From Microlunatus elymi (GTDB lineage: Bacteria; Actinomycetota; Actinomycetes; Propionibacteriales; Propionibacteriaceae), in NCBI RefSeq assembly GCF_007362775.1, contig NZ_CP041692.1, positions 3,348,001 to 3,412,000 on the forward strand: 64,000 nucleotides of DNA. Direction: 5' to 3'. Below are positions 2,611-38,278 of this stretch, piece after piece (position 1 is the first letter of the stretch; each line of letters starts with the position of its first letter). The notes under the pieces were generated by a model. That model saw only the letters and a list, made by a program, of their open reading frames with translations, made no database searches and was not told the origin of the DNA. The position numbers and the translations under genes are program-made.

Positions 2611-4248
2611 TCATCGCCGTTGGGCGACGATCTTCTCCTGCTCGACCTGATCGGCTTCCAGCGGCTTGGTGTCCTCACGGCCGACCAGGAAGTTGCCCTC
2701 CGCGGTCTTGAAGCCCTTCTTGAACTCCGCGATCTCGGTCCGCAGCGCTTCCTTGGTCGAGTCCTCGAACACCTTGGACTCGCGAATGCCGGCCAGGATG
2801 CCGGTGTTGCCGTGCCGCAGGTGCTCCAGCAGCTCCTGCTCGAAGCGCAGCACGTCGGAGACCGGGACGTCGTCGAACTGTCCGTCCAGACCGGCCCAGA
2901 TGCTGACGACCTGCTCCTCGAACGGGTACGGGCTGTACTGCGGCTGCTTCAGCAGCTCCATCAGTCGTGAACCCCGCTCCAGCTGACGCCGAGTGGTCGC
3001 GTCCAGGTCGGAGGCGAACATGGCGAACGCCTGCATGTCGCGGAACCGGGCGAGCTCGGTCTTCAACGCCGACGCGGCCGTCTTCATCGCCTTCGTCTGC
3101 GCGGCGCCGCCGACCCGGGACACCGAGATGCCCACGTCGATGGCCGGGCGCTGATTGGCGTTGAACAGGTCGGACTGCAGGAAGATCTGGCCGTCGGTGA
3201 TCGAAATGACGTTGGTCGGGATGTAGGCCGACACGTCGTTGGCCTTGGTCTCGATGATCGGCAGGCCGGTCATCGAGCCGCCGCCGAGCTCCGGGCTCAG
3301 CTTGGCGCAACGCTCCAGCAGCCGGGAGTGCAGGTAGAACACGTCACCCGGGTAGGCCTCGCGGCCCGGCGGACGCCGCAGCAGCAGCGACATCGCGCGG
3401 TACGCCTCGGCCTGCTTGCTCAGGTCGTCGAAGACGATCAGCACGTGCTTGCCCTGGTACATCCAGTGCTGGCCGATGGCCGAGCCGGTGTACGGGGCGA
3501 TGTACTTGTAGCCGGCCGGATCCGAGGCCGGCGCGGACACGATGGTGGTGTACTCCATCGCGCCGTTCTCCTCCAGCGAGGAACGGACCGCGGCCACCGT
3601 GGAGGCCTTCTGGCCGATCGCGACGTAGACGCAGAGCACCTGCTGCTCCGGGTCGCCGGTGGCCCAGTTGTCCTTCTGATTGATGATCGTGTCGACCGCG
3701 ATCGCCGTCTTGCCGGTCTTGCGGTCGCCGATGATCAGCTGACGCTGACCGCGGCCGATCGGGATCATGCCGTCGATCGCCTTCATCCCGGTCTGCAGCG
3801 GCTGCCGGACCTCGGCCCGGTCCATCACGCCGGCGGCCTGCACCTCGAGGTCACGCCGACCGTCCAGGTTGGTGATCTCGCCGAGGCCGTCGATCGGGCG
3901 GCCGAGCGCGTCCACCACCCGGCCGAGGTAGCCGTCGCCGACCGGGACCGAGAGGATGTCGCCGGTGCTCTTGACCGTCGACCCCTCCTCGATGCCCTCG
4001 GAGTCGCCCATCACCACGACGCCGATCTCGCGGGTGTCGAGGTTCTGCGCGATGCCGATGGTGCCGTTCTCGAACTGCAGCAGCTCGTTGGCCATTGCCG
4101 ACGGCAGACCCTCGACCCGAGCGATGCCGTCACCGGAGCTGATCACGGTGCCGACCTCTTCGCGGCTGGCCGCCTCCGGGGTGTAATTCCGGACGTAGTT
4201 GTCCAGAGCTTCCCGGATCTCCTCCGGGCGAATCGTGAGTTCTGCCAT
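2611..4248 (-). CDS. atpA: F1Fo ATP synthase subunit alpha
   Basis: 545 residues. Alpha holds the non-catalytic nucleotide sites and donates the arginine finger to beta. The P-loop GDRKTGKT is at about residues 174-181, and the arginine-finger segment [13 protein letters not shown] is present. The N-terminal barrel includes [14 protein letters not shown]. The gene lies 57 bases downstream of atpH and 35 bases upstream of atpG. No damage is seen. Confidence 0.98.
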
Positions 4249-4305
4249 CGCCTTCGTTCCTGCTCTCGAAGTATGTGTTCTCGTCGTTCAAACGTAGGTG
4301 GTTCG

Positions 4306-5097
4306 TCAGCCGAATTGCCGGCGTACTTCATCCAACCGGCCGGCCACGGTGCCCTCGATGACCTCGTCACCGAGCTCGATCCTCAGGCCGCCGAGCAGTT
4401 CCGGCTCGACGATCTCCTGGAGGGCGACCTCACGGCCGACCTGCCGGGCCAACGCGTTCTGCAGCCGATCGCGCTGCTGCAGTTCCAGCGGCCGGGCCAC
4501 CCGGACGGTGGCGATCAGCCGATTCCGAAGCGTCGCCGCCTCGGCGACGTAGCCGCCCAGGGTACGAGCGAAGTTGCGATCCCGGGCACCGATCGCGCGC
4601 TCGGCCAGCCGTACGGTCTCGGCCGCCGCTCTGCCGGACAGCAGTGCGTCGACCAACTCAACCCGGCGTTCGACCGAAGCGGTCCGATCGGTGATCGCAG
4701 CACGCAGGGCGGCATCGCCGTCGACCAACCGTCCGAAGCGGAAGAGCTGGTCCTCCACGTCGTCCAGCCGGTGCTCGGACTGAGCCACCTTGAGCAGCGC
4801 CCGAATCGCCTGCCGTTCGAGTGCGTCCAGCAGCGCCCGATGCCCGAGTCGCTTGCCGACGGCCTCGGTGACCAGGCCGAGTGCGGCCGAGTCGATCCGA
4901 GACTCCAGCAGGCCCTGAGCCAGCCCCTGCCGGCGTTCGGTCGGCGTGCTCGGGTCGGTCAGCGCACGGCGCAGTGCCGGCGAGCCTTCGAGCAGGTCGA
5001 CCACGCCGAACAGCTCGTCGGCCAACTCGGCGCTGACCTGGGTACGGTCCAGGGTTGCGTCCAGTTCGGCGACCGCGGCCTCGGACTCGATGCTCAC
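4306..5097 (-). CDS. atpH: F1Fo ATP synthase subunit delta
   Basis: 263 residues, the long actinobacterial form of delta (about 180 in E. coli). Delta joins the top of F1 to the peripheral stalk. The C-terminal segment (VARPLELQQRDRLQNALARQVGREVALQEIVEPELLGG) matches the conserved OSCP/delta end, with a final hydrophilic IEGTVAGRLDEVRRQF. Its start overlaps the end of atpF by 4 bases, so the two are probably translationally coupled. Confidence 0.95.
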   Translation of the reverse strand: MSIESEAAVAELDATLDRTQVSAELADELFGVVDLLEGSPALRRALTDPSTPTERRQGLAQGLLESRIDSAALGLVTEAVGKRLGHRALLDALERQAIRALLKVAQSEHRLDDVEDQLFRFGRLVDGDAALRAAITDRTASVERRVELVDALLSGRAAAETVRLAERAIGARDRNFARTLGGYVAEAATLRNRLIATVRVARPLELQQRDRLQNALARQVGREVALQEIVEPELLGGLRIELGDEVIEGTVAGRLDEVRRQFG

Positions 5098-5642
5098 TGG
5101 ACGTTCGCTCCCTCGGGCGCCTCGGAGGACTCGAGGTCGGCGATGAAGCGATCGACCGTCCGCCGGGCCCGCTCGTCGTCGTCCAGCGACTCACCGACGA
5201 TCCGGCCGGCCAGCGAGGTGGCCAGGCCACCCAACTCGCCGCGCAACTGGCTGACGATCTGGGACCGCTCGGCCTCCAGCTGGGAGTGAGCTGCCGCGAC
5301 GATCCGGTCGGCCTCGGCCTGGGCCCGCTCGCGCATCTCGGCGACGATCTGGGCACCCTCGGACTTGGCCTGTTCCTTGATCTGAGCGGCTTCACCCCGG
5401 GCGTCGGCGAGCTGAGCCTGGTACGACTGCAGCGCCGCCTGCGCTTCTTCCTGTGCCTTCTCGGCCTTCTGGATGCCGCCCTCGATCGCCTCGGCCCGTT
5501 GGGCGTACGTCTGCTCGAACCGCGGCATCACGACCTTCCAGACGATCACCGTCAGGATCAGCGCGAAGACGATCGCCGCGATGATCTCCGACAGGTGCGG
5601 CAGGATCGGGTTCTCTTCGAGTGGAACGAGAAGCGTGATCAT
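5094..5642 (-). CDS. atpF: F1Fo ATP synthase subunit b
   Basis: 182 residues. One N-terminal membrane helix (about residues 17-38, IIAAIVFALILTVIVWKVVM) is followed by a long Ala/Glu/Gln-rich helix that dimerises as the peripheral stator. The gene sits between atpE and atpH, overlapping atpH by 4 bases. The organisation is ordinary for the family. Confidence 0.96.
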   Translation of the reverse strand: MITLLVPLEENPILPHLSEIIAAIVFALILTVIVWKVVMPRFEQTYAQRAEAIEGGIQKAEKAQEEAQAALQSYQAQLADARGEAAQIKEQAKSEGAQIVAEMRERAQAEADRIVAAAHSQLEAERSQIVSQLRGELGGLATSLAGRIVGESLDDDERARRTVDRFIADLESSEAPEGANVQ

Positions 5643-5655
5643 GATCCGATTCCGC

Positions 5656-5880
5656 TCAGTTCATGAAGACGAAGGCGAGCGCGAGGCCGATCATGGCCAG
5701 CGCCTCGGTCAGCGCGAAGCCGATCCACGCGGTGCCCATCATGGCGCCACGAGCCTCCGGCTGACGCGCGGTGCCCTGAATGACGGCGGCGAAGATCAGA
5801 CCGACGCCGATGCCCGGGCCGATGGCGCCGAGGCCGTAGCCGATGGCAGCGAGCGAACCGCGAATCTCCATTGGAGTCAT
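5656..5880 (-). CDS. atpE: F1Fo ATP synthase subunit c
   Basis: 74 residues, starting at the ATG at 5880 with a GGAAAGGAAACA-type ribosome site. Two membrane helices form the c-ring hairpin. The first is glycine-rich ([17 protein letters not shown]), the polar loop has ARQPEA, and the second helix carries the ion-binding carboxylate, Glu59, in [14 protein letters not shown]. The absence of the extra polar ligands of sodium-type rings suggests a proton ring (inference). The open frame extends further upstream, but that part overlaps atpB antisense-like sequence and lacks the family start. Confidence 0.96.
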
Positions 5881-5945
5881 TGCTGTTGTTTCCTTTCCCT
5901 GTTCGGGTTTCCGCTGACCGGACTCCCGGCCAGAAGCTGTGTTTG

Positions 5946-6737
5946 TCAGTGCTCGTCGGCGAGTGCGGTGCCGACGTACTGGGCGGTCAGGAGGGTGAAG
6001 ATGTAGGCCTGGAAGGCCTCGACGAAGATCTCCAGGCCGAAGATCGCCATCGAGAAGATCAGCGAGACGACACCGGCGACGTTGTTGAACAACGATTCGC
6101 TCTCGAACAGCAGGTACTCGCCGCCGAGCACGAAGATCAAGATCAACAAGTGACCGGCGAACATGTTGGCGAAGAGTCGAAGGCTCAACGTGATCGGCCG
6201 CAGGATGATGTTCGAGACGAACTCGATCGGGATGATGATGAACCACATCGGCCACGGCACACCCGAGGGCAATACCGACCGGCGCATGTACCCGAAGAAG
6301 CCGTGCTTCTTAATACCGACGGCGTTGTAGAGCACCCAGCTCATGATCGCCAGGCCGTAGGCCCAGCCGACCTTGCCGATCGTCGGGAAGACGAAGACCG
6401 GGAAGACACCCCAGATGTTGTTCACCAGGATGAAGGAGAACAACGCCACCAGGAACGGCACGAACTTCTTGAAGTCGTGGCCGATCTGGTCCCGGGCGAT
6501 CCCGTCCCGGACGAAGTTGTAGGTGAACTCACCGACGAACTGCCCCTTGGTCGGCACCAGCGAGCGCTTGTTCGACATGATCAACCAGAACGCGATGATC
6601 AAGATCATCGAGATGATCGCCATCAACATCGGCAGGTTGAACCAGCTCGGCGCGCCGTGCCAGATCGGCGGCTTGTCGAAGCTGTGCACGCCCGGGAGTT
6701 CGAAGCCCTCCAAGGGAACCAGCAGCGGTGTGGCCAT
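5946..6737 (-). CDS. atpB: F1Fo ATP synthase subunit a
   Basis: 263 residues with about five or six membrane helices. The essential half-channel arginine is Arg187 in [15 protein letters not shown]. Subunit a forms the proton access channels facing the c-ring. It is the first structural gene of the operon, upstream of atpE, and follows the two small AtpI/AtpZ-like genes. Confidence 0.97.
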
Positions 6738-8062: not shown

Positions 8063-9238
8063 TCATCGTCGCGAGGTGGCGTCGTTGACCACCTCCGGGC
8101 GGTCGTCCAGCCGGCTCTGCCCCGACTTGCGTTTGCCGCCCTTGCCGTTGATCGGGCGGCCGAGGGTCAGGATCGACAACACGATCGCGACCACCACGAT
8201 CACCACCACCACCTCCCAGCTGTGCAACTGGGCCAGCGCGATCACTCCGAAGGAGACCAGCGCGGTCCAGGCATACATGATCAACACCGCCCGGCGCATG
8301 CCGTGCCCGCGTTGCATCAGCCGGTGATGCAGGTGCTGTTTGTCCGCCACGAACCACCACTTGCCGTGATAGGTCCGCCGGACGAAGGCCAGCACGAAGT
8401 CCAGGATCGGCAACGCCAGGATCGCCAGCGGCAGCACCAGCGGCAGATAGGTCGGCAGCAGTCCCCCGCCGCCCCGGGTGTCCTCCAGTTGAGACGAGTC
8501 CATCTGCCCGGTCAGGCTGATCGTCGAGGTGGCGAGCAGGAAACCGAGCAGCATCGCACCCGAATCGCCCATGAACATCCGGGCCGGCTGGAAGTTGTGC
8601 GGCAGGAAACCGATGCAGGCGCCGACCACGGCCACCGTGATCAGGCTCGAGGTGGTGGCGCGGACCAGGTCCAGCTGGACGGTCAGGTTGTAGGAGTAGA
8701 TGAAGAAGGCGAACGCACCGATGCCGACCACGCCGGCGGCCAAACCGTCCAGCCCGTCGACGTAGTTGACCGCGTTCGTACACAGCAGCACGAAGAACAC
8801 CGTGATCGCGATCTGCACACTGCTGTCCAGGGCGATGGTGTTGTTGTTCAGCGGGATGTAGAGCATCTTCACGCCGAAGCCGACCAACAGGCCGGCGGCC
8901 AGCACCTGCCCGGCCAGCTTGGCGAACGGGTTCAGGTCGAGCAGGTCGTCCAGCACCCCGACCGCGCAGATCACCGCCGCGCCGAGCAGCACCGCGCGGG
9001 AGTCGGATCGGACGATGGGCACCTCGCCGAGGAACGGCAGATGGTTGGCGACCAGGAAGGCCGCCGTCACCCCGCACAACATCGCGACGCCGCCGAAGTA
9101 GGGCATCTCGACGGTGTGCACGTCCCGGGCCCGGATCTTCGCCACCGCCCCGGTCCGCAATGCGACTCGTCGCCAGACCGCTGCCAGCACGTACGTGGTG
9201 GCCGCCGAGATCAGCAGGACGAGCAGGTATTCACGCAT
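8063..9238 (-). CDS. wecA: WecA/TagO-type undecaprenyl-phosphate GlcNAc-1-phosphate transferase
   Basis: 391 residues, polytopic, of the polyprenyl-phosphate sugar-1-phosphate transferase family (MraY/WecA/TagO). It moves a sugar-1-phosphate from a UDP-sugar to the lipid carrier and starts wall polymer synthesis at the inner membrane. Visible motifs: DVHTVEMPYFGGVAM near the N-terminus, NAVNYVDGLDGLAAGV, GDSGAMLLGFLLA and the His-rich QHLHHRLMQRGHG loop typical of the WecA branch. In mycobacteria the homologue in this position makes decaprenyl-PP-GlcNAc. It begins 3 bases downstream of sua5. Confidence 0.88.
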   Translation of the reverse strand: MREYLLVLLISAATTYVLAAVWRRVALRTGAVAKIRARDVHTVEMPYFGGVAMLCGVTAAFLVANHLPFLGEVPIVRSDSRAVLLGAAVICAVGVLDDLLDLNPFAKLAGQVLAAGLLVGFGVKMLYIPLNNNTIALDSSVQIAITVFFVLLCTNAVNYVDGLDGLAAGVVGIGAFAFFIYSYNLTVQLDLVRATTSSLITVAVVGACIGFLPHNFQPARMFMGDSGAMLLGFLLATSTISLTGQMDSSQLEDTRGGGGLLPTYLPLVLPLAILALPILDFVLAFVRRTYHGKWWFVADKQHLHHRLMQRGHGMRRAVLIMYAWTALVSFGVIALAQLHSWEVVVVIVVVAIVLSILTLGRPINGKGGKRKSGQSRLDDRPEVVNDATSRR

Positions 9239-17144: not shown

Positions 17145-18089
17145 TCAGGCCTCGTCGCTGTCCGGCCGGCTGATCTTGTCGGCGACGATCCTGGCGCCGG
17201 CCGCCACCTCGAGGCGGAGGCAACGGAATTCGACCGATACCGCCTGCTCGGCGTCAACGAGCTGAGCCTCGGTACCGAGCACCAGCACGGTCGGCCCGGC
17301 GCCGCTGATCACCGCCGGCAGCTGCTGTCCCCGCAGGGTGTCCAGCAGGGCGGCCGACTGCGGCATCGCCGTGGCGCGATACGACTGATGCAGCCAGTCG
17401 GCAGTCGCCTCGAACAACAACTCGGGCGCGGCGGTCAACGCCCGAACCAGCAAACCCGCCCGACCGGCGTTCGCCGCGGCATCGGAATGGGGCACCGACT
17501 TCGGCAACAGCGCTCGGGCCTGCTCTGTTCCCACCGGGGTCGGCGGAATCAGCGCCAGTGCGCCGATGTCGGGGTGCACGCCGGCGACCGACGCTGCGAC
17601 CTGCCGGTCGCCGCCCACCCGGCGATAGGCCAGCACCAGATCGCCGTACAACGCGGCCGCGACGTTGTCGGGATGTCCCTCGATCTCGTCAGCCGGCCCG
17701 AGCCAGTCCGCCGGATCGAACGGTTCGTCGGGCCGGGCCAGTCCGTGCGCCCCGATCAGGCCGGTGACGATCGCCGCCGACGAGGATCCCAGTCCGCGGC
17801 TGCCCGGGATCCGGTTGTGCGCCTCGACGCGTACGCCGGCGGGCTCGACCCCGAGCCGTCTCAAGCCGAACTCGAGACTTCGTACGATGAGGTTCCGGCG
17901 GCCGGTCGGCAGCCGGCCCGCCCCCTCACCGGCGACGACGACCCGGGTGGGTTCGTCGACCACGCTGAAACTGCAGCTGTTGTAGAGATCGAGGGCCAGT
18001 CCCAGACAGTCGAATCCCGGCCCGAGGTTGGCGCTGGTCGCGGGAACCTCGACCTCGACTCGACGTCCAGCAGGCAACACGCTCGGCAT
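17145..18089 (-). CDS. thrB: Homoserine kinase
   Basis: 314 residues, GHMP kinase family. It phosphorylates homoserine for threonine synthesis. The ATP-binding loop is PGSRGLGSSSAAIVTGL, the N-terminal substrate region is VPATSANLGPGFDCLGLAL, and the C-terminal motif is AVISGAGPTVLVL. It starts 3 bases downstream of thrC and ends the hom-thrC-thrB run. Confidence 0.95.
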   Translation of the reverse strand: MPSVLPAGRRVEVEVPATSANLGPGFDCLGLALDLYNSCSFSVVDEPTRVVVAGEGAGRLPTGRRNLIVRSLEFGLRRLGVEPAGVRVEAHNRIPGSRGLGSSSAAIVTGLIGAHGLARPDEPFDPADWLGPADEIEGHPDNVAAALYGDLVLAYRRVGGDRQVAASVAGVHPDIGALALIPPTPVGTEQARALLPKSVPHSDAAANAGRAGLLVRALTAAPELLFEATADWLHQSYRATAMPQSAALLDTLRGQQLPAVISGAGPTVLVLGTEAQLVDAEQAVSVEFRCLRLEVAAGARIVADKISRPDSDEA

Positions 18090-33130: not shown

Positions 33131-36100
33131 GTGGCCACCGCGCCCGACCCACACTCCACCAGCAACTCAGCAGAAGACTTCGGCGCCAACGACTGGCTGA
33201 TCGAGCAGATGTACGAGCAGTACGTCGCCGATCCGAAATCGGTCGACGCGACCTGGGCCCGTTACTTCAGCACCAACGGGGCTCCGGGATCAGCACCGGC
33301 CGCCACCGGCACCGTCGCCGCCAAGTCCGCCTCGCCCACCACCCAGCAACCGCCGAGTGCTCCTGCCAACGGCGCGGCCCCGGCCCGGTCCGCCGCCTCC
33401 CCAGCCCAGACGTCACCGGCCAAGGCCGCCCCGACCCAGACCGCCCCGACCCAGACCGCCCCGACCCAGACCGCCCCGACCCAGACCGCCCCGACCCAGA
33501 CCGCTCAGGCCCAGACCGCCCCGACGAAGCCGGCCGAGCAGAGCGCGCCGGCGCGACCGACGTCGAAGGTCGAGTCCAAGACCAACCAGAGCCAGCCGGC
33601 CAAGCCGGCCACCGGGGCCGGTCTGCCCGCCGATCCGCCGAATCCCTCCGAGCGGCCCGCCGCCGGAAGTGATGAGCCGCTGCGGGTCGTGATGCGCGGC
33701 GCCCCGATGCGAACCGCGAAGAACATGGACGCATCGCTGACCGTGCCCACCGCGACCAGTGTGCGCTCGCTGCCGGTCAAGCTGCTGATCGATCAGCGGA
33801 TCGTGATCAACAACCACCTGCGCCGCGCCCGCGGCGGCAAGGTGTCCTTCACCCACATCATCGGCTACGCGATTGTTCAAGCCTTAAAGGCGATTCCGGA
33901 CATGAACGTCGCCTACGAGGTGGTCGACGGCAAGCCGAATCTGGTCAAGCCGGCGCACATCAATCTCGGTCTGGCCATCGACCTGCCCAAGCCCGACGGC
34001 ACCCGCCAGCTGGTGGTGCCGAGCATCAAGGGTGCGGAGGATCTCGACTTCGCCCAGTTCTGGGCCGCGTACGAGCAGATCGTCAAGAAGGCGCGTGGCA
34101 ACAAGCTGACCGTCGACGACTTCGCCGGCACCACCATCTCGTTGACCAACCCGGGCACCATCGGCACCAACCATTCGGTCCCCCGGCTGATGAACGGTCA
34201 GGGCGCGATCATCGGCGTCGGATCGATGGACTACCCGGCCGAGTTCCAGGGCTCGAACCCGGAGCGGCTGAACACCCTCGGCGTCTCCAAGATCATGACG
34301 CTCACCTCGACCTACGACCACCGGGTCATCCAGGGTGCGCTGTCGGGTGAGTTCCTGGCCAAGCTGCATGCGCTGCTGCTCGGCGAGGACGGCTTCTACG
34401 ACCACATCTTCACCTCGCTGCGGATCCCGACCGCGCCGATCTACTGGGCGACCGACCGCAGCACCATGCACGAGGACCAGGTTTCCAAGAATGCAAGGGT
34501 TTTCGAGCTGATCAACGCCTATCGGGTGCGCGGTCACCTGATGGCCGACATCGACCCGATCGAGTACCACCTGCGCAATCATCCTGATCTTGATGTGCAG
34601 ACCCACGAGCTCACCTTGTGGGACCTTGATCGCGAGTTCGCCACCGGCGACTTCGCCGACGGCTCCGGCCGGATGACCCTGCGCAAGATCCTCGGCATCC
34701 TGCGGGACTCGTACTGCCGGACCGTCGGCATCGAGTACATGCACATCCAGGATCGCGCCCAGCGTCGCTGGATCCAGGCTCACGTCGAGCGGCCGCACGA
34801 GTCGATGCCGCGCGACGAGCAGCTGCGGATCATGGACAAGCTCAACGAGGCCGAGATCTTCGAGACCTTCCTGCAGACCAAGTACGTCGGTCAGAAGCGG
34901 TTCAGTCTCGAGGGCGGCGAGTCCGCGATCGCCTTGCTGGACGAGATCTGCGAGCAGGCCGCCGATGATCAACTGGACGAGGTCACCATCGGGATGGCCC
35001 ACCGTGGCCGGCTGAACGCCTTGGCCAACATCGTCGGCAAGTCGTACACCCAGATCTTCCGCGAGTTCGAGGGCAACATCGATCCGCGGACCGTGCAGGG
35101 CTCCGGCGACGTCAAGTACCACCTGGGCGCGGAGGGCAAGTTCACTTCGCTGGCCGGGAACACGATCAAGACCTCGATGGCGGCCAATCCGAGTCACCTG
35201 GAGGCCGTTGATCCTGTGCTGGAAGGGATTGCGCGGGCCAAGCAGGACATTCTTGATCAAGGTACGGAGTATCCGGTGCTGCCGGTGCTGGTGCACGGTG
35301 ACGCCGCGTTCGCGGGCCAGGGCGTGGTGGCCGAGACGCTGGGACTGTCGCAGCTGCGCGGCTATCGCACCGGCGGCACCATCCACGTCGTGGTCAACAA
35401 CCAGGTCGGATTCACCACCACCCCGGCCGAAGGTCGTTCCTCCACCTACGCCACCGACGTTGCCCGGATGGTGCAGGCACCGATCTTCCACGTGAACGGC
35501 GACGATCCCGAGGCCTGCATCCAGGTCGCCCGGTTGGCCTACGACTACCGCCGCGAGTTCAACAAGGACGTGGTGATCGACTTGGTCTGCTACCGCAGCC
35601 GCGGTCACAACGAGGGCGACGATCCGAGCATCACCCAGCCGCTGATGTACGACCTGATCAGCAAGAAGCGCAGCGTCCGCAAGATCTACACCGAGGCGCT
35701 GATCGGTCGTGGCGACATCACCATCGAGGACGCCGAAGAGGTGCTGAAGAAGTTCCAGTCCCGGCTGGAGAGTGTCTTCGAGGAGGTCCGGCAGGCGGCC
35801 ACCGCGCCGGTCGACGACGAATACCGTCGCCATCCGAAGTATCCGGAGAAGACCGGTGCCAAGCACGGCACCGCGATCAGCCCCGAGGTGATGCAGCGGA
35901 TCGCCGACGCGCACCTGAACGTGCCGGAGGGATTCACCGTGCACCCGAAGGTGCTGCCGCAGTTGCAGCGGCGGGCGAAGTCGATCGCCGAGGGCGGCAT
36001 CGACTGGGGCACGGGCGAGTTGCTGGCGCTCGGTTCGGTGATGATCGAGGGTCGGCCGGTCCGGCTGACCGGTCAGGACACCCGGCGCGGCACGTTCTCA

Positions 36101-37036
36101 TCCCGGTTCGCCGCGTTGGTGGATCGCAAGAACGCCGACGTCTGGATTCCCTTGCAGCACTTGGATCCGCAGCAGGGGCGCTTCCACGTGTTCAACTCGC
36201 CGTTGAGCGAGTACGCCGCGATGGGCTTCGAGTACGGCTACTCGGTGGCTCGGCCGGAGGCGCTGGTGCTGTGGGAGGCGCAGTACGGCGACTTCTCCAA
36301 CGGCGCGCAGACGATCATCGACGAGTTCATCACCGCCGGCTACTCCAAGTGGGGCCAGAAGTCCGGCGTGGTGCTGCTGCTGCCGCACGGCTACGAGGGC
36401 CAGGGATCGGACCACAGCTCGGCGCGGATCGAACGCTGGCTGCAACTTGCGGCCGACAACGCCTTCACCGTGGCGCAGCCGTCGACCTCGGCGAGTTACT
36501 TCCACCTGCTCCGCAATCACGCGCTCAGTTCCAACCACAAACCGCTGATCGTGCTGACACCGAAGCGGATGCTGCGGATGAAGGCGGCGGCTTCGCAGCC
36601 GACCGACTTCACCGAGGGCAGCTGGGAGTCGGTGCTGGGTGACGATTCGATCAGCGATCCGAGCAAGGTCCGCCGGATGATCCTGACCAGCGGGATGGCC
36701 CGCTGGGAGCTGATGGCCGAACGGGACAAGCAGGGCAAGTCGGAGGAGATCGCGGTGGTGGCGCTGGAGCGCTACTACCCGCTGCCGGCCGACCAGATCG
36801 CTGCCGAGCTGGCGAAGTATCCGAATCTGGAGCAGTTCTACTGGGTGCAGTACGAGCCGAAGAATCAGGGTGCGTGGCCGTTCCTGGCGCTCAACCTGCC
36901 GGAGGCGTTCGCCGAGCTCGGTGTGAATCAGCAGCTCACTCCGGTCACCCGGCCCGCCTCCTCGGCGCCGGCCACCGGCTCCCACAAGGTGCACGAGGCC
37001 GAGCAGAAGCAGTTGTTCGCCACCGCCCTGGGCTGA
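33131..37036 (+). CDS. kgd: Multifunctional 2-oxoglutarate decarboxylase/dehydrogenase E1 with fused succinyltransferase domain
   Basis: 1301 residues, the actinobacterial Kgd/OdhA fusion. The N-terminal E1-type peptide NDWLIEQMYEQYVADP is followed by an Ala/Pro-rich linker with six PTQTA-type repeats (about residues 100-130). An E2-like succinyltransferase domain comes next (PRLMNGQGAIIGVGSMDYPAEF, TSTYDHRVIQGALSGEFL), then the thiamine-diphosphate E1 domain (MAHRGRLNAL, GDAAFAGQGVVAETLGLSQL, VNNQVGFTT). No lipoyl domain is present, as expected for the family. It runs the 2-oxoglutarate step of the TCA cycle and is controlled by GarA/OdhI-type proteins elsewhere. Confidence 0.96.
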   Translation: MATAPDPHSTSNSAEDFGANDWLIEQMYEQYVADPKSVDATWARYFSTNGAPGSAPAATGTVAAKSASPTTQQPPSAPANGAAPARSAASPAQTSPAKAAPTQTAPTQTAPTQTAPTQTAPTQTAQAQTAPTKPAEQSAPARPTSKVESKTNQSQPAKPATGAGLPADPPNPSERPAAGSDEPLRVVMRGAPMRTAKNMDASLTVPTATSVRSLPVKLLIDQRIVINNHLRRARGGKVSFTHIIGYAIVQALKAIPDMNVAYEVVDGKPNLVKPAHINLGLAIDLPKPDGTRQLVVPSIKGAEDLDFAQFWAAYEQIVKKARGNKLTVDDFAGTTISLTNPGTIGTNHSVPRLMNGQGAIIGVGSMDYPAEFQGSNPERLNTLGVSKIMTLTSTYDHRVIQGALSGEFLAKLHALLLGEDGFYDHIFTSLRIPTAPIYWATDRSTMHEDQVSKNARVFELINAYRVRGHLMADIDPIEYHLRNHPDLDVQTHELTLWDLDREFATGDFADGSGRMTLRKILGILRDSYCRTVGIEYMHIQDRAQRRWIQAHVERPHESMPRDEQLRIMDKLNEAEIFETFLQTKYVGQKRFSLEGGESAIALLDEICEQAADDQLDEVTIGMAHRGRLNALANIVGKSYTQIFREFEGNIDPRTVQGSGDVKYHLGAEGKFTSLAGNTIKTSMAANPSHLEAVDPVLEGIARAKQDILDQGTEYPVLPVLVHGDAAFAGQGVVAETLGLSQLRGYRTGGTIHVVVNNQVGFTTTPAEGRSSTYATDVARMVQAPIFHVNGDDPEACIQVARLAYDYRREFNKDVVIDLVCYRSRGHNEGDDPSITQPLMYDLISKKRSVRKIYTEALIGRGDITIEDAEEVLKKFQSRLESVFEEVRQAATAPVDDEYRRHPKYPEKTGAKHGTAISPEVMQRIADAHLNVPEGFTVHPKVLPQLQRRAKSIAEGGIDWGTGELLALGSVMIEGRPVRLTGQDTRRGTFSSRFAALVDRKNADVWIPLQHLDPQQGRFHVFNSPLSEYAAMGFEYGYSVARPEALVLWEAQYGDFSNGAQTIIDEFITAGYSKWGQKSGVVLLLPHGYEGQGSDHSSARIERWLQLAADNAFTVAQPSTSASYFHLLRNHALSSNHKPLIVLTPKRMLRMKAAASQPTDFTEGSWESVLGDDSISDPSKVRRMILTSGMARWELMAERDKQGKSEEIAVVALERYYPLPADQIAAELAKYPNLEQFYWVQYEPKNQGAWPFLALNLPEAFAELGVNQQLTPVTRPASSAPATGSHKVHEAEQKQLFATALG
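33431..33520 (+). repeat. Six 15-bp tandem repeats in the kgd linker
   Basis: The unit CCGACCCAGACCGCC occurs four times exactly from 33431, then twice with small changes. It encodes PTQTA repeats in the flexible linker. In-frame copy-number change is the likely mutation mode. Confidence 0.9.
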
Positions 37037-37045
37037 CGTTCGATC

Positions 37046-37225
37046 ATGTACTTCACCGATCGCGGCATCGAGGAGCTCGAGTCGCGCCGAGGCGAGGAGG
37101 ACGTCAGCCTGGCCTGGGTGGCGGAGCAACTTCGTACCTTCGTGGATCTCAACCCCGAGTTCGAGACCCCGATCGAACGCTTCGCCACCTGGCTGGCCCG
37201 CGCCGACGACGACTTCGAGGACTGA
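37046..37225 (+). CDS. DUF6104 family small protein
   Basis: 59 residues starting MYFTDRGIEELESRRGEEDV, with AEQLRTFVDLNPEFETPIERFATWLAR. This acidic small protein is found directly after kgd in many actinobacteria as DUF6104 (from memory of the family). It starts 9 bases after the kgd stop codon, so it is probably co-transcribed. The function is unknown; a link to the 2-oxoglutarate dehydrogenase complex is only suggested by position. Confidence 0.8.
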   Translation: MYFTDRGIEELESRRGEEDVSLAWVAEQLRTFVDLNPEFETPIERFATWLARADDDFED

Positions 37226-37292
37226 AGGCGATCACGAGACAATTCCGTTGCCTGCCTGACCTGTCGCGGTCTAGTGTCCTCTTCGCCCCGGA

Positions 37293-37329
37293 TCAGTGTT
37301 GAGGCCGGACGTGTCCGGCAACATCACAC
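37293..37329 (+). other. Strong hairpin just 5' of the tRNA-like element
   Basis: GCCGGAC (37304-37310) pairs with GTCCGGC (37313-37319), extended by GTGTT/AACA-type pairing outside a small bulge. There is no following T-tract, so it is a poor intrinsic terminator. It may be part of the same RNA as the tRNA-like domain. Confidence 0.45.
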
Positions 37330-37332
37330 GCG

Positions 37333-37401
37333 TCGTACCCGGGGAACCGTGAATGGTAAAGCGCACTCTTTATGCGTCGAGGTTCGACTCCTCTCCTACG
37401 A
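37333..37401 (+). ncRNA. tRNA-like RNA element (Y-RNA-like candidate) upstream of slipin
   Basis: The segment has tRNA geometry but is not a normal tRNA. A five-base TCGTA/TACGA acceptor-like stem closes it. The anticodon-like arm GCGCA/TGCGT (one G-T pair) has a seven-base CTCTTTA loop with a CTT anticodon position. A T-arm GAGG/CCTC with loop TTCGACT follows with almost no variable loop. The D region has a conserved-looking AATGGTA but no proper D-stem, and no CCA follows. Bacterial YrlA Y RNAs are tRNA mimics of this style. Alternatives are a decayed tRNA-Lys or an integration scar. Confidence 0.5.
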
Positions 37402-37585
37402 AGGTCGGGGTCGGGCGGCGACATCGGACGAACCGATGCCTTGTGGCGACGCCGGTCAGCACGACGGCGTCGGCCCCGCATCGACTCGTCGTCGCCGTCC
37501 GGCCCTGCCACAGGTCGGGGCTGTGTCAGTAGGACCTGCCACGCGGGACGATCGCGACGCATCGACAACGAAGGGAGGCCGTGGG
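37402..37585 (+). promoter_or_regulatory. Hairpin-rich leader between the tRNA-like element and slipin
   Basis: No gene. It holds CATCGG/CCGATG (around 37422-37438) and an eight-base CGACGCCG/CGGCGTCG hairpin (around 37447-37472). These may be the 3' part of the same RNA, or the slipin 5' untranslated region. A GGAGG ribosome site precedes the ATG at 37586. Confidence 0.35.
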
Positions 37586-38278
37586 ATGAAGCAGAACCTG
37601 TTCTCGATCACCGTCAACGCACATGAGCGTGCCCTGGAGTTCACCGACGGCCGACTGTCGCGGGTGCTGGAGCCGGGACGATATCGGCGGGTGCGGCGAG
37701 CCGAGTTCCGGGTGATCGACATCCGCGATCAGCTGATGATCATCAGCCCGCAGGACGTTCCGGCTGCCGACGGTGTGCAGGTCAAGGTGTCCGCGACGCT
37801 GCGTTGGCACGTCGACGATCCGGTTGCCTTCGATCAGGTTGCCGCCGATCCGGCTCAGCTGGTGTACGCGGCCGTGCAGGTCGCCATCCGGGAATCCGTC
37901 GCGGCAATCGCCTCGACCGACCTGGCCGGTGTCGCTCGGCGAGATCTCGGATCGGCGCTGACCGAGACCGCGACGGCGGCCGGGCGTGAACTGGGCATCG
38001 GCATTCGTACCGTCCAGGTCAAGGACGTGCTGCTGCCGGGCGAGATCCGGTCTGCCGTGTTGGAGGCCTTGGTCGCGCAGCGGCAGGGCGTGGCAAAGCT
38101 GGAGGCTGCGCGGGCCGAGACCGCCGCGCTGCGGTCGATGGCGAACGCGGCCAAGCTGCTCGATGATCACCCGGCGCTGGCGCAACTGCGACTGCTGCAG
38201 TCGGCCCCGTATGGGACCAAGATCGTCATGCAGTTGCCCGGTGGCGACCGGGTGACTGACGTTGCGGTCAACGACTAG
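37586..38278 (+). CDS. Slipin family SPFH/band 7 protein (soluble form)
   Basis: 230 residues, no membrane helix. The start ITVNAHERALEFTDGRLSRVLEPGRYRR, the SPFH core (IISPQDVPAADGVQVKVSATLRWHVDDP) and the coiled end (LLPGEIRSAVLEALVAQRQGVAKLEAARAETAALRSMANAAKLLDDHPALAQLRLLQ) match the short slipins found beside rtcB, Ro60 or Y-RNA genes in other bacteria. Proteins of this family oligomerise as scaffolds. None of those partner genes is in this window. The ATG at 37586 has a GGAGG site. Confidence 0.85.
   Translation: MKQNLFSITVNAHERALEFTDGRLSRVLEPGRYRRVRRAEFRVIDIRDQLMIISPQDVPAADGVQVKVSATLRWHVDDPVAFDQVAADPAQLVYAAVQVAIRESVAAIASTDLAGVARRDLGSALTETATAAGRELGIGIRTVQVKDVLLPGEIRSAVLEALVAQRQGVAKLEAARAETAALRSMANAAKLLDDHPALAQLRLLQSAPYGTKIVMQLPGGDRVTDVAVND

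What the first reader, a model, noticed from the sequence alone, without database searches (positions are those of the whole stretch)
37293..38278. tRNA-like RNA next to a soluble slipin: possible Y-RNA/RNA-repair remnant or new minimal system
Seen: acceptor-like TCGTA/TACGA, an anticodon-like arm with a CUU-type seven-base loop, and a T-arm with loop TTCGACT directly after it, flanked by strong hairpins and followed by an SPFH slipin gene with no membrane helix. The D-arm is broken and CCA is absent, so it is not an ordinary tRNA-Lys. Known: YrlA-class bacterial Y RNAs mimic tRNA and bind Ro60; short slipins occur beside RtcB/Ro60 genes. Inference: this may be a Ro60-less, RtcB-less pairing of a tRNA mimic with a scaffold protein, expressed after kgd.
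Basis: partly seen in the sequence, partly recalled or inferred. Interest (0 to 1): 0.85.

Follow-up and report, generated by a model that had tools for sequence, protein, structure and literature searches.

The report
tRNA-mimic RNA paired with soluble slipin
Scattered actinobacteria carry a structured RNA, apparently undescribed, that imitates part of a transfer RNA and sits directly in front of a gene for a stomatin-like scaffold protein that has lost its membrane anchor, often behind a promoter of the kind switched on when antibiotics block protein synthesis.

Summary
Window 37286-37509 encodes a conserved structured RNA: a 5' hairpin with a conserved internal loop, a tRNA-elbow module (D-loop-like YGGYR, variable hairpin, T-arm), and a 43-pair 3' hairpin with a conserved asymmetric internal loop. 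It lies upstream of a soluble slipin (37586-38278). A covariance model from 22 loci (87 doubly changed cells; shuffles 29, 0/500 as high) scores the window 80.7 bits. In 394 genomes of its class all 13 hits at E<=1e-5 lie beside a soluble slipin. Rfam 15 shows no such family. It is not YrlA (other module order, no model match) nor a decayed tRNA; the TCGTA/TACGA 'acceptor' is a coincidence. In the slipin the membrane-inserting segment has turned basic (net charge >=3 in 44 of 50 relatives, mean +4.1; ordinary slipins +1.2). A WhiB7/WblC-type promoter precedes the RNA in 22 of 38 loci (0.5% of shuffles); the window's own copy is weak. In another class the RNA-slipin pair ends a 12-tRNA array. 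Best reading (about 50%): a translation-stress ribonucleoprotein, a slipin ring with its own tRNA-mimicking RNA, working like Ro60-Y RNA. Main rival: a cis-acting slipin leader. Expression and binding are untested.

The parts
37238..37277 (+). Promoter-like element: A/T box GACAAT (37238-37243), -35 TTGCCT (37248-37253), 18-nt spacer, -10 TAGTGT (37272-37277); a weak instance of the WhiB7/WblC promoter type that is clear in relatives
   Evidence: position conserved relative to the RNA start; >=5/6 GAAAWY + N3 + N6 + N16-19 + TANNNT in 22 of the 38 loci tested, 18 of 3800 dinucleotide shuffles. The exact pattern is absent from the window and the sigma-70 consensus scan does not list this site.
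37286..37344 (+). 5' hairpin: P1 37286-37291 with 37339-37344; internal loop AUCA 37292-37295 / GCGUCGUAC 37330-37338 (conserved); P2 37296-37299 with 37326-37329; upper stem 37305-37310 with 37313-37318
   Evidence: Alignment A5, pair counts (helices 88% and 78% of cells paired, 13 of 17 pairs with a double change), model R1 match 37286-37394, 80.7 bits (the window is in the training set as L005)
37354..37358 (+). D-loop-like motif UGGUA
   Evidence: YGGYR in 34 of 41 loci at this place, 20% in shuffles
37361..37377 (+). Anticodon-arm-like hairpin (GCGCA-CUCUUUA-UGCGU), variable in sequence and loop size among relatives
   Evidence: mean score of the best hairpin at this place 12.0 in 39 loci versus 7.8 in mononucleotide shuffles; only 8 of 39 are individually below 5%, the window is 8.5%
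37379..37393 (+). T-arm GAGG-UUCGACU-CCUC
   Evidence: helix 3: 97.7% of cells paired, 3 of 4 pairs with double changes; absent in 10 of 52 loci read
37403..37509 (+). 3' long hairpin P3/P4 (43 pairs) with asymmetric internal loop CCUUGUGG (37439-37446) / GCCCCGC (37473-37479)
   Evidence: the loop shape is in 31 of 34 separately folded loci; six more loci folded do not show it in their best fold and were not carried into, so 31 of 40; z -3.74
37570..37578 (+). Ribosome-binding site GAAGGGAGG
   Evidence: sequence
37586..38278 (+). Soluble stomatin-type SPFH protein (slipin), 230 aa; residues 30-47 (37673-37726) PGRYRRVRRAEFRVIDIR replace the hydrophobic segment of ordinary slipins
   Evidence: Pfam Band_7 4.2e-24; AlphaFold pLDDT 91.8; P. 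horikoshii stomatin Z 17.3, human stomatin Z 15.7; segment comparison; no membrane helix

Best explanation
A two-part translation-stress cassette. SHOWN by comparison: one conserved structured RNA (5' hairpin, usually a tRNA-elbow module, long 3' hairpin) precedes a soluble stomatin-type protein whose membrane anchor is gone and whose hydrophobic membrane loop has become basic; the two are inherited together; a WhiB7/WblC-type promoter starts the unit in many members. INFERRED: when translation is blocked WhiB7 turns the unit on; the RNA is made from its own start at the foot of P1, folds, and is possibly freed from the slipin mRNA by RNase III cutting of the long 3' hairpin; slipin subunits form a cytosolic ring whose basic face binds the two hairpins through their conserved internal loops; the D/T elbow then imitates a tRNA to recruit, or keep busy, an enzyme that grips tRNA elbows, so that the particle protects, sorts or repairs tRNAs during translation stress. 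It would work like Ro60-YrlA, from unrelated parts.
For: Covariation: 84.5% of cells paired versus 64.7% shuffled and 40-55% slid; 87 doubly changed cells versus 29. In the same 394 genomes, 13 of 13 model hits at E<=1e-5 are in slipin-positive genomes and adjacent to slipin, 0 in the 376 others. No model hit at 16 membrane-slipin loci. Basic segment: net charge >=3 in 44 of 50, mean +4.1 versus +1.2 (n=16); hydropathy -1.12 versus +0.61. In 25 loci no neighbour besides slipin is shared by more than 4 loci except ABC-transporter ATPases (13 loci, scattered places). The slipin tree forces at least 4 changes between loci with and without the T-arm, while several T-less loci keep both hairpins, as expected if hairpins bind the protein and the elbow recruits. 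WhiB7-type promoter 22 of 38; a WhiB protein with an AT-hook exists in G000. In G768/G779 the unit follows a tRNA array. In Anabaena a slipin (alr0740) is derepressed 42-fold without TrcR, which also represses rtcB and a 26-tRNA array and is relieved under translation stress (PMC10272220, passages).
Against: No transcript, no binding, no oligomer shown. No terminator between RNA and slipin, so it may be only a leader. The tRNA-like stretch does not fold stably by itself in the window. The elbow module is missing in 10 of 52 loci. The number of doubly changed pairs is only slightly above shuffles (16 versus 13.2; 36 of 500 as high). The window's own promoter is a weak match, and 16 of 38 loci fail the rule. 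Five of the 18 slipin-positive genomes gave no RNA hit and only 21-27 bits when their loci were searched, within the range of false hits (up to 30.8 bits). L062, L063 and L065 are missed by the model. One search scored only 9 candidates a genome with strict filters, so lone copies could have been missed. A basic face could bind acidic lipid or protein instead of RNA.
Confidence: 0.5

Rival explanations
1. Cis-acting leader: the RNA is the 5' untranslated region of slipin mRNA and only regulates slipin, for example slipin binds its own leader, or a tRNA-elbow-binding protein senses translation state through the mimic and changes slipin translation or mRNA stability.
For: Always upstream on the same strand, not found elsewhere; no terminator between RNA and gene; promoter-like element at the RNA start; WblC is reported to control many noncoding RNAs and UTRs (PMC7157823, passages).
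Against: No terminator was found in the window, and the distance from the last hairpin to the start codon varies (16 nt in L064, 76 nt in the window), unlike switches that mask the ribosome-binding site; masking itself was not tested. About 220 nt with three modules is much for simple autoregulation.
Confidence: 0.33
2. The element is a degenerating tRNA (or tRNA-array end) that happens to sit before slipin; conservation is residual.
For: In G768/G779 the RNA is the last member of a tRNA array; tRNAs or a tmRNA lie near L118 and L120.
Against: Doubly compensated hairpins outside any tRNA fold, conserved internal loops across families, link to one protein family, no tRNA-model score.
Confidence: 0.03
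3. A divergent YrlA-class Y RNA serving a Ro60 encoded elsewhere.
For: tRNA elbow mimicry; two relatives with this slipin (G008, G019) also have Ro60.
Against: G000 has no TROVE hit; YrlA model negative; module order differs from the YrlA-like RNA beside Ro60 in G008; R1 gives that RNA only 13.5 bits, E 0.23.
Confidence: 0.04

Closest known systems
YrlA-class bacterial Y RNA with Ro60 (Rsr); Rfam RF02553
   Same: Non-decoding RNA with D-loop/T-loop elbow mimicry next to a protein scaffold; at two of seven TROVE-positive relatives (G008, G054) the YrlA-like locus also carries an exact WhiB7-type promoter pattern
   Different: No Ro60; no match to the YrlA model; module order is not that of the YrlA-like RNA of G008; partner is an SPFH protein; two long hairpins with their own conserved internal loops
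Stomatin / slipin (SPFH, Band 7) proteins; soluble subfamilies SPFH8 and SPFH9 of PMC2636767 (passages)
   Same: SPFH fold: P. horikoshii stomatin Z 17.3, human stomatin Z 15.7; Pfam Band_7; soluble subfamilies without documented members were already noted, also in Actinobacteria
   Different: Membrane anchor absent and hydrophobic segment replaced by a basic one; linked to a dedicated RNA. Whether it is SPFH8 or SPFH9 was not tested
Vault particle (major vault protein shoulder = SPFH fold, with vault RNAs)
   Same: SPFH-fold subunit (MVP Z 11.8) associated with small noncoding RNAs (PMC13347060, passages)
   Different: No MVP repeats or cap helix; RNA association here is inferred only
Anabaena TrcR regulon: 26-tRNA array, rtcB, slipin alr0740
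   Same: A slipin expressed together with a tRNA array and RNA repair under translation stress (PMC10272220, passages; PMC9938897, passage, whose authors warn of an antibiotic effect)
   Different: Cyanobacterial, different regulator; the region upstream of alr0740 was not examined here
WhiB7/WblC regulon
   Same: Promoter grammar GAAAWY, 3 bp, -35, 16-19 bp, TANNNT (PMC7157823, passages) found at 22 of 38 RNA-slipin loci
   Different: No induction data; the window's own copy is weak

Membership tests
YrlA (RF02553) | Match to the Rfam covariance model | tested here: not met
   Window stretch at E up to 10: no YrlA; G000 no YrlA hit at E<=0.001; 6 relatives at E up to 5: none
YrlA (RF02553) | Module order T-arm, acceptor hairpin, D-arm closed by a Ro60-binding stem (order read in G008; Ro60 stem recalled) | tested here: not met
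   Here D-motif, hairpin, T-arm with separate 5' and 3' hairpins; YrlA-like RNA of G008
YrlA (RF02553) | Ro60/TROVE gene in the genome | tested here: not met
   G000 0 hits; 7 of 57 genomes positive
tRNA | tRNA model match, acceptor stem, CCA, anticodon arm of fixed loop | tested here: not met
   no conserved acceptor, loop size varies
tRNA-elbow mimic | T-arm with UUCRANY-type loop plus D-loop GG upstream | tested here: met
   T-arm in 42 of 52 loci read, one of them (L065) with a UGCAAAU loop; YGGYR in 34 of 41. The tertiary contact itself is not testable
Any Rfam 15 family | Gathering-score match over the RNA | tested here: not met
   Window and 20 relatives: only ordinary tRNAs and a tmRNA elsewhere
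SPFH / slipin protein | Band_7 domain and SPFH fold | tested here: met
SPFH / slipin protein | N-terminal membrane segment (of the classic members) | tested here: not met
   Highest 19-aa hydropathy in the N-terminal 60 aa: at most 1.49 over 38 proteins, mean 0.52; 12 ordinary slipins 1.54-3.29
RtcB/Ro60 RNA-repair operon | RtcB in genome or locus | tested here: not met
   G000 has no RtcB; G002, G003, G009 have RtcB away from the slipin; not among shared neighbours
WhiB7/WblC regulon | GAAAWY-N3-(-35)-N16-19-TANNNT promoter in the family of loci | tested here: met
   22 of 38 loci with one mismatch allowed in the box and any -35, shuffles 18 of 3800; 0 exact matches in 16 membrane-slipin loci
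WhiB7/WblC regulon | The same promoter in the window | tested here: inconclusive
   Box GACAAT 5/6, -35 1/4 at the strict spacing, -10 TAGTGT; exact pattern absent
WhiB7/WblC regulon | Induction by ribosome inhibitors through WhiB7 | not testable with these tools
   No expression data; G000 has a WhiB protein with an AT-hook
Vault RNP | Cage of SPFH-type subunits with bound small RNA | not testable with these tools
   Fold similarity only

The most novel reading that the evidence does not exclude
An SPFH-based bacterial ribonucleoprotein: a cytosolic stomatin-type ring that has traded its membrane face for an RNA-binding face and carries its own tRNA-mimicking RNA, switched on by WhiB7 when ribosomes stall. 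It would be an independent counterpart of Ro60-Y RNA and a bacterial analogue of the vault's SPFH-protein-plus-small-RNA design.
Probability: 0.42. Interest if true: 0.93.

Novelty: new variant of a known kind. Interest (0 to 1): 0.82.

Why it matters
SPFH proteins are known mainly as membrane organisers; no paper in the listings I saw links a bacterial one to a dedicated RNA (searches; open-licence papers only). A conserved RNA-slipin pair would help explain why slipin genes turn up with tRNA arrays and RNA repair, would add a candidate effector to the actinobacterial antibiotic-stress response, and gives a small two-part system in which the question 'what is a tRNA mimic on a ring protein for' can be tested genetically. 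The RNA family itself (about 50 loci, not in Rfam 15) appears new whatever its function.

Tried and rejected
YrlA, tRNA and any Rfam family: rejected. No YrlA hit reaches Rfam's cut-off; the one I read away from Ro60 (L050) is two tandem tRNAs by eye.

Pseudoknot between the internal-loop CGUCGU and ACGAC of the 3' hairpin loop: complementary in many loci but no compensating change seen on reading the sequences; not claimed.

Phage or mobile origin: no slipin hit in 50,697 phage records and none confirmed in viral contigs; 17 viral contigs matched a bare sequence pattern, which I read as chance matches (best model score 23.7 bits). One slipin hit in 72,556 plasmid records.

Partner genes: in 25 loci ABC-transporter ATPases recur in 13 (Pfam on five members) at scattered places; no other neighbour is shared by more than 4 loci. 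I take them as chance but did not test this. SPFH8/SPFH9 assignment not tested. Sigma-70 consensus or terminator for the unit: none found (its one promoter-like site lies inside slipin).

Rows dropped. Three slipin fragments (L004, L010, L013) have no intact upstream region, show no T motif and are not counted. Order-level hits G234, G306 and G356 were not fetched. The 52 loci read are: 6 of the window's genus (L011 is cut by the contig end inside slipin), 3+4+3 of three other genera of its family, 20, 13, 2, 1 plasmid record. Several are near-copies (for example L104/L105, L115/L147), so counts of loci overstate independence. Subsets: 38 of 52, 35, 41, 39. For the 3' hairpin, six loci folded (L002, L067, L095, L121, L123, L124) did not show the internal-loop shape in their best fold and were left out; L002 and L095 have the loop letters. 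Three genomes with weak model hits (G376, G493, G609) and a second weak hit in G495 were not read.

Full report
WHAT IS THERE. The window lies in a 5.12-Mb genome (G000); the named relatives of this slipin that a scan of genome contigs returned are four Propionibacteriaceae or Propionibacteriales MAGs. Order on the + strand: kgd (33131-37036), DUF6104 (37046-37225), the element, slipin (37586-38278), then a lacI-type regulator on the other strand. ARAGORN and Rfam at gathering score name nothing in the element, and at E up to 10 only five chance-level families appear.

CONSERVATION. The nine genus and family slipin loci first read (L001-L003, L005-L009, L011) all have GGTTCGANTCC about 150-300 nt upstream of slipin. 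Searches with slipin profiles gave 32 of 198 family genomes at E<=1e-20, of which 17, at E<=2.7e-40, are of this soluble kind; 36 of 293 order genomes and 18 of 394 class genomes at E<=1e-28; and 5 of 256 phylum genomes, two of them new. I read the upstream region of 52 soluble-slipin loci: 42 have a T-arm, 10 do not (L062, L063, L067-L069, L107-L111). Sixteen membrane-anchored slipin loci, used as control, show no such RNA with the model.

STRUCTURE. Alignment A5 of 22 loci with P1, P2 and the T-arm: 84.5% of cells paired against 64.7% in shuffles and 40-55% when slid; 87 doubly changed cells against 29, 0 of 500 shuffles as high; pairs with a double change 16 against 13.2, 36 of 500 as high; T-arm 97.7% paired. 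The structure was drawn partly from one row, so the slid control leans its way. Between P1 and the T-arm the best hairpin has unrelated sequence from locus to locus: mean score 12.0 in 39 loci against 7.8 in shuffles, but only 8 of 39 individually below 5% and the window 8.5%. A D-loop-like YGGYR precedes it in 34 of 41 loci, 20% in shuffles. After the T-arm a hairpin of 21-48 pairs was cut out in 34 loci; 31 of them have the same internal-loop shape, with YYUG on the 5' side in 23 of the 31 (YYUGYGG in 14) and YCCR on the 3' side in all 31, including loci without a T-arm (L062, L063, L107-L111). Six further loci folded lack the shape in their best fold and had been left out, so the fair count is 31 of 40. 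Against: the tRNA-like stretch of the window folds no better than shuffles (z 0.49); the 225-nt whole is z -3.74.

EXCLUSIVITY. Model R1 scores the window 80.7 bits at 37286-37394 (a training row) and finds 24 of 27 soluble-slipin loci outside its training set at E<=0.004; L062, L063 and L065 are missed. L147 scores 58.7 bits. In L145/L146 it cannot tell the RNA from the neighbouring tRNAs, so those are assigned by eye. In the same 394 class genomes searched with slipin and with R1, 13 hits at E<=1e-5 all fall in slipin-positive genomes, next to slipin. The other five slipin-positive genomes gave no hit and 21-27 bits when their loci were searched, which overlaps false hits (up to 30.8 bits). 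Ten other genomes have hits weaker than 1e-5; of seven read, two are tRNAs and five I read as chance, mostly in open frames; three were not read. One search scores only 9 candidates a genome with strict filters, so lone copies may be missed. Rfam shows no family over the RNA at 20 relatives.

PROTEIN. AlphaFold on 38 relatives gives pLDDT 91.8. P. horikoshii stomatin Z 17.3 (104 aligned, rmsd 1.3), human stomatin Z 15.7 (215 aligned, rmsd 10.6), major vault protein Z 11.8. The profile search of PDB sequences puts stomatin chains first, E 3e-22. There is no membrane helix in 38 relatives. The segment that in ordinary slipins reads like PGLIFILPFLDKMVRVDLR reads PGRYRRVRRAEFRVIDIR here; over 50 RNA-linked proteins mean net charge +4.1 (range 0 to 8; >=3 in 44) and hydropathy -1.12, over 16 membrane slipins +1.2 (range 1 to 3) and +0.61. 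That this segment touches the membrane in stomatins is recalled, not from a call. The basic face as RNA-binding is inference.

PROMOTER. P1 is preceded by TANNNT within 20 nt in 25 of 35 loci, 7% in shuffles. The published WblC rule (GAAAWY, 3 bp, -35 TKGMNN, 16-19 bp, TANNNT, start 7-8 bp on; PMC7157823, passages), with one mismatch allowed in the box and any -35, fits 22 of 38 loci and 18 of 3800 dinucleotide shuffles. With no mismatch the pattern is absent from the 64-kb window (0.27 expected), whose own element is GACAAT...TAGTGT. In the fetched loci it also occurs at a few other places (for example on the other strand of L002 and L003, and in L141). A WhiB protein with an AT-hook exists in G000 and in G009, G055, G231 and G692; the AT-hook as the mark of WhiB7 is from PMC3905903 (passages). 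Two of the seven TROVE-positive genomes (G008, G054) carry the exact pattern at their YrlA-like/Ro60 locus.

tRNA ARRAY. In G768 and G779, of another class, the slipin follows a tRNA array (12 genes in G768, 5 within the stretch of G779) whose last member, by eye, is an RNA with hairpin and T-arm like ours. In G768 an exact WhiB7-type pattern (0.17 expected by chance in the 15-kb stretch, so weak by itself) lies about 215 nt upstream of the first tRNA.

CONTEXT. In 25 loci no neighbour besides slipin is shared by more than 4 loci, except ABC-transporter ATPases in 13. On the slipin tree well-supported branches force at least 4 changes between loci with and without the T-arm (36 and 9 rows, rooting unsure), so the elbow module looks like a removable part. 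Phages and viral contigs: none (chance matches). Plasmids: one record, Tsukamurella tyrosinosolvens NZ_LR134452.1, with the RNA at 58.7 bits.

MECHANISM. I take a stress-induced slipin-RNA particle as most likely (0.5) and a cis-acting leader as the main rival (0.33). Shown: RNA family, tight pairing, protein remodelling, promoter type in many members. Inferred: transcription, release from mRNA, slipin binding, ring formation, recruitment by the elbow, role in tRNA maintenance. The Anabaena slipin alr0740, raised 42-fold without the repressor TrcR, which also silences rtcB and the 26-tRNA array (PMC10272220, passages), supports the tRNA-stress direction from a distant phylum.

NOVELTY. Papers searched. 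One search (tRNA-like and slipin) found no paper; in the listings of the others I saw none on a bacterial SPFH protein with a dedicated RNA. Only open-licence papers are searched, and I read passages of nine (searches cover ten papers, passages only), so this is not proof. I file it as a new variant of the 'ring protein plus tRNA-mimic RNA' kind, not as a YrlA.

Noticed in passing
L148 (G768:C240) 4200-6420, - strand: A 12-tRNA array with a WhiB7-type promoter pattern, and by eye a possible short leader peptide and a hairpin followed by a T-rich stretch before the first tRNA, ending in the RNA and slipin; looks like an antibiotic-inducible tRNA operon with attenuation.
   Followed up: partly
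L047 1305-1342 and L049 1379-1416: Exact WhiB7/WblC-type promoter patterns at YrlA-like/Ro60 loci of two of seven TROVE-positive genomes (G008, G054), suggesting that Y RNA/Ro60 is also translation-stress controlled in some actinobacteria.
   Followed up: partly
window 37454-37467 and relatives: Conserved apical loop GGUCAGCACGACGG of the 3' hairpin in many loci of the window's order, resembling the 5' internal loop (UCAG...; CGUCGU is complementary to ACGACG); no compensating changes seen.
   Followed up: partly
L107, L109, L110, L111 (family f2) and L067-L069 (genus g34): RNAs without the T-arm; the f2 ones keep both the 5' hairpin and the 3' hairpin with its internal loop: a natural test of what the elbow module does.
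   Followed up: partly
L147, L156, L157, L158, L160, L164 and others: ABC-transporter ATPase genes lie within a few kb of slipin in 13 of 25 loci; probably chance, as such genes are common, but not tested.
   Followed up: partly
window 17852-17944: ARAGORN calls a tRNA-Gly on the minus strand that Rfam's tRNA model does not list at its gathering score; possibly a false or odd tRNA.
   Followed up: no
L147 7977-8642 / 8623-9030: In Tsukamurella tyrosinosolvens NZ_LR134452.1 (labelled plasmid 10) the slipin gene overlaps a convergent MarR-family gene at their 3' ends.
   Followed up: no
L118 2509-2581, L120 1029-1101 and 2971-3343: Ordinary tRNA genes, and in L120 a tmRNA gene, lie within about 1.5 kb of the slipin unit in some distant loci.
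   Followed up: no
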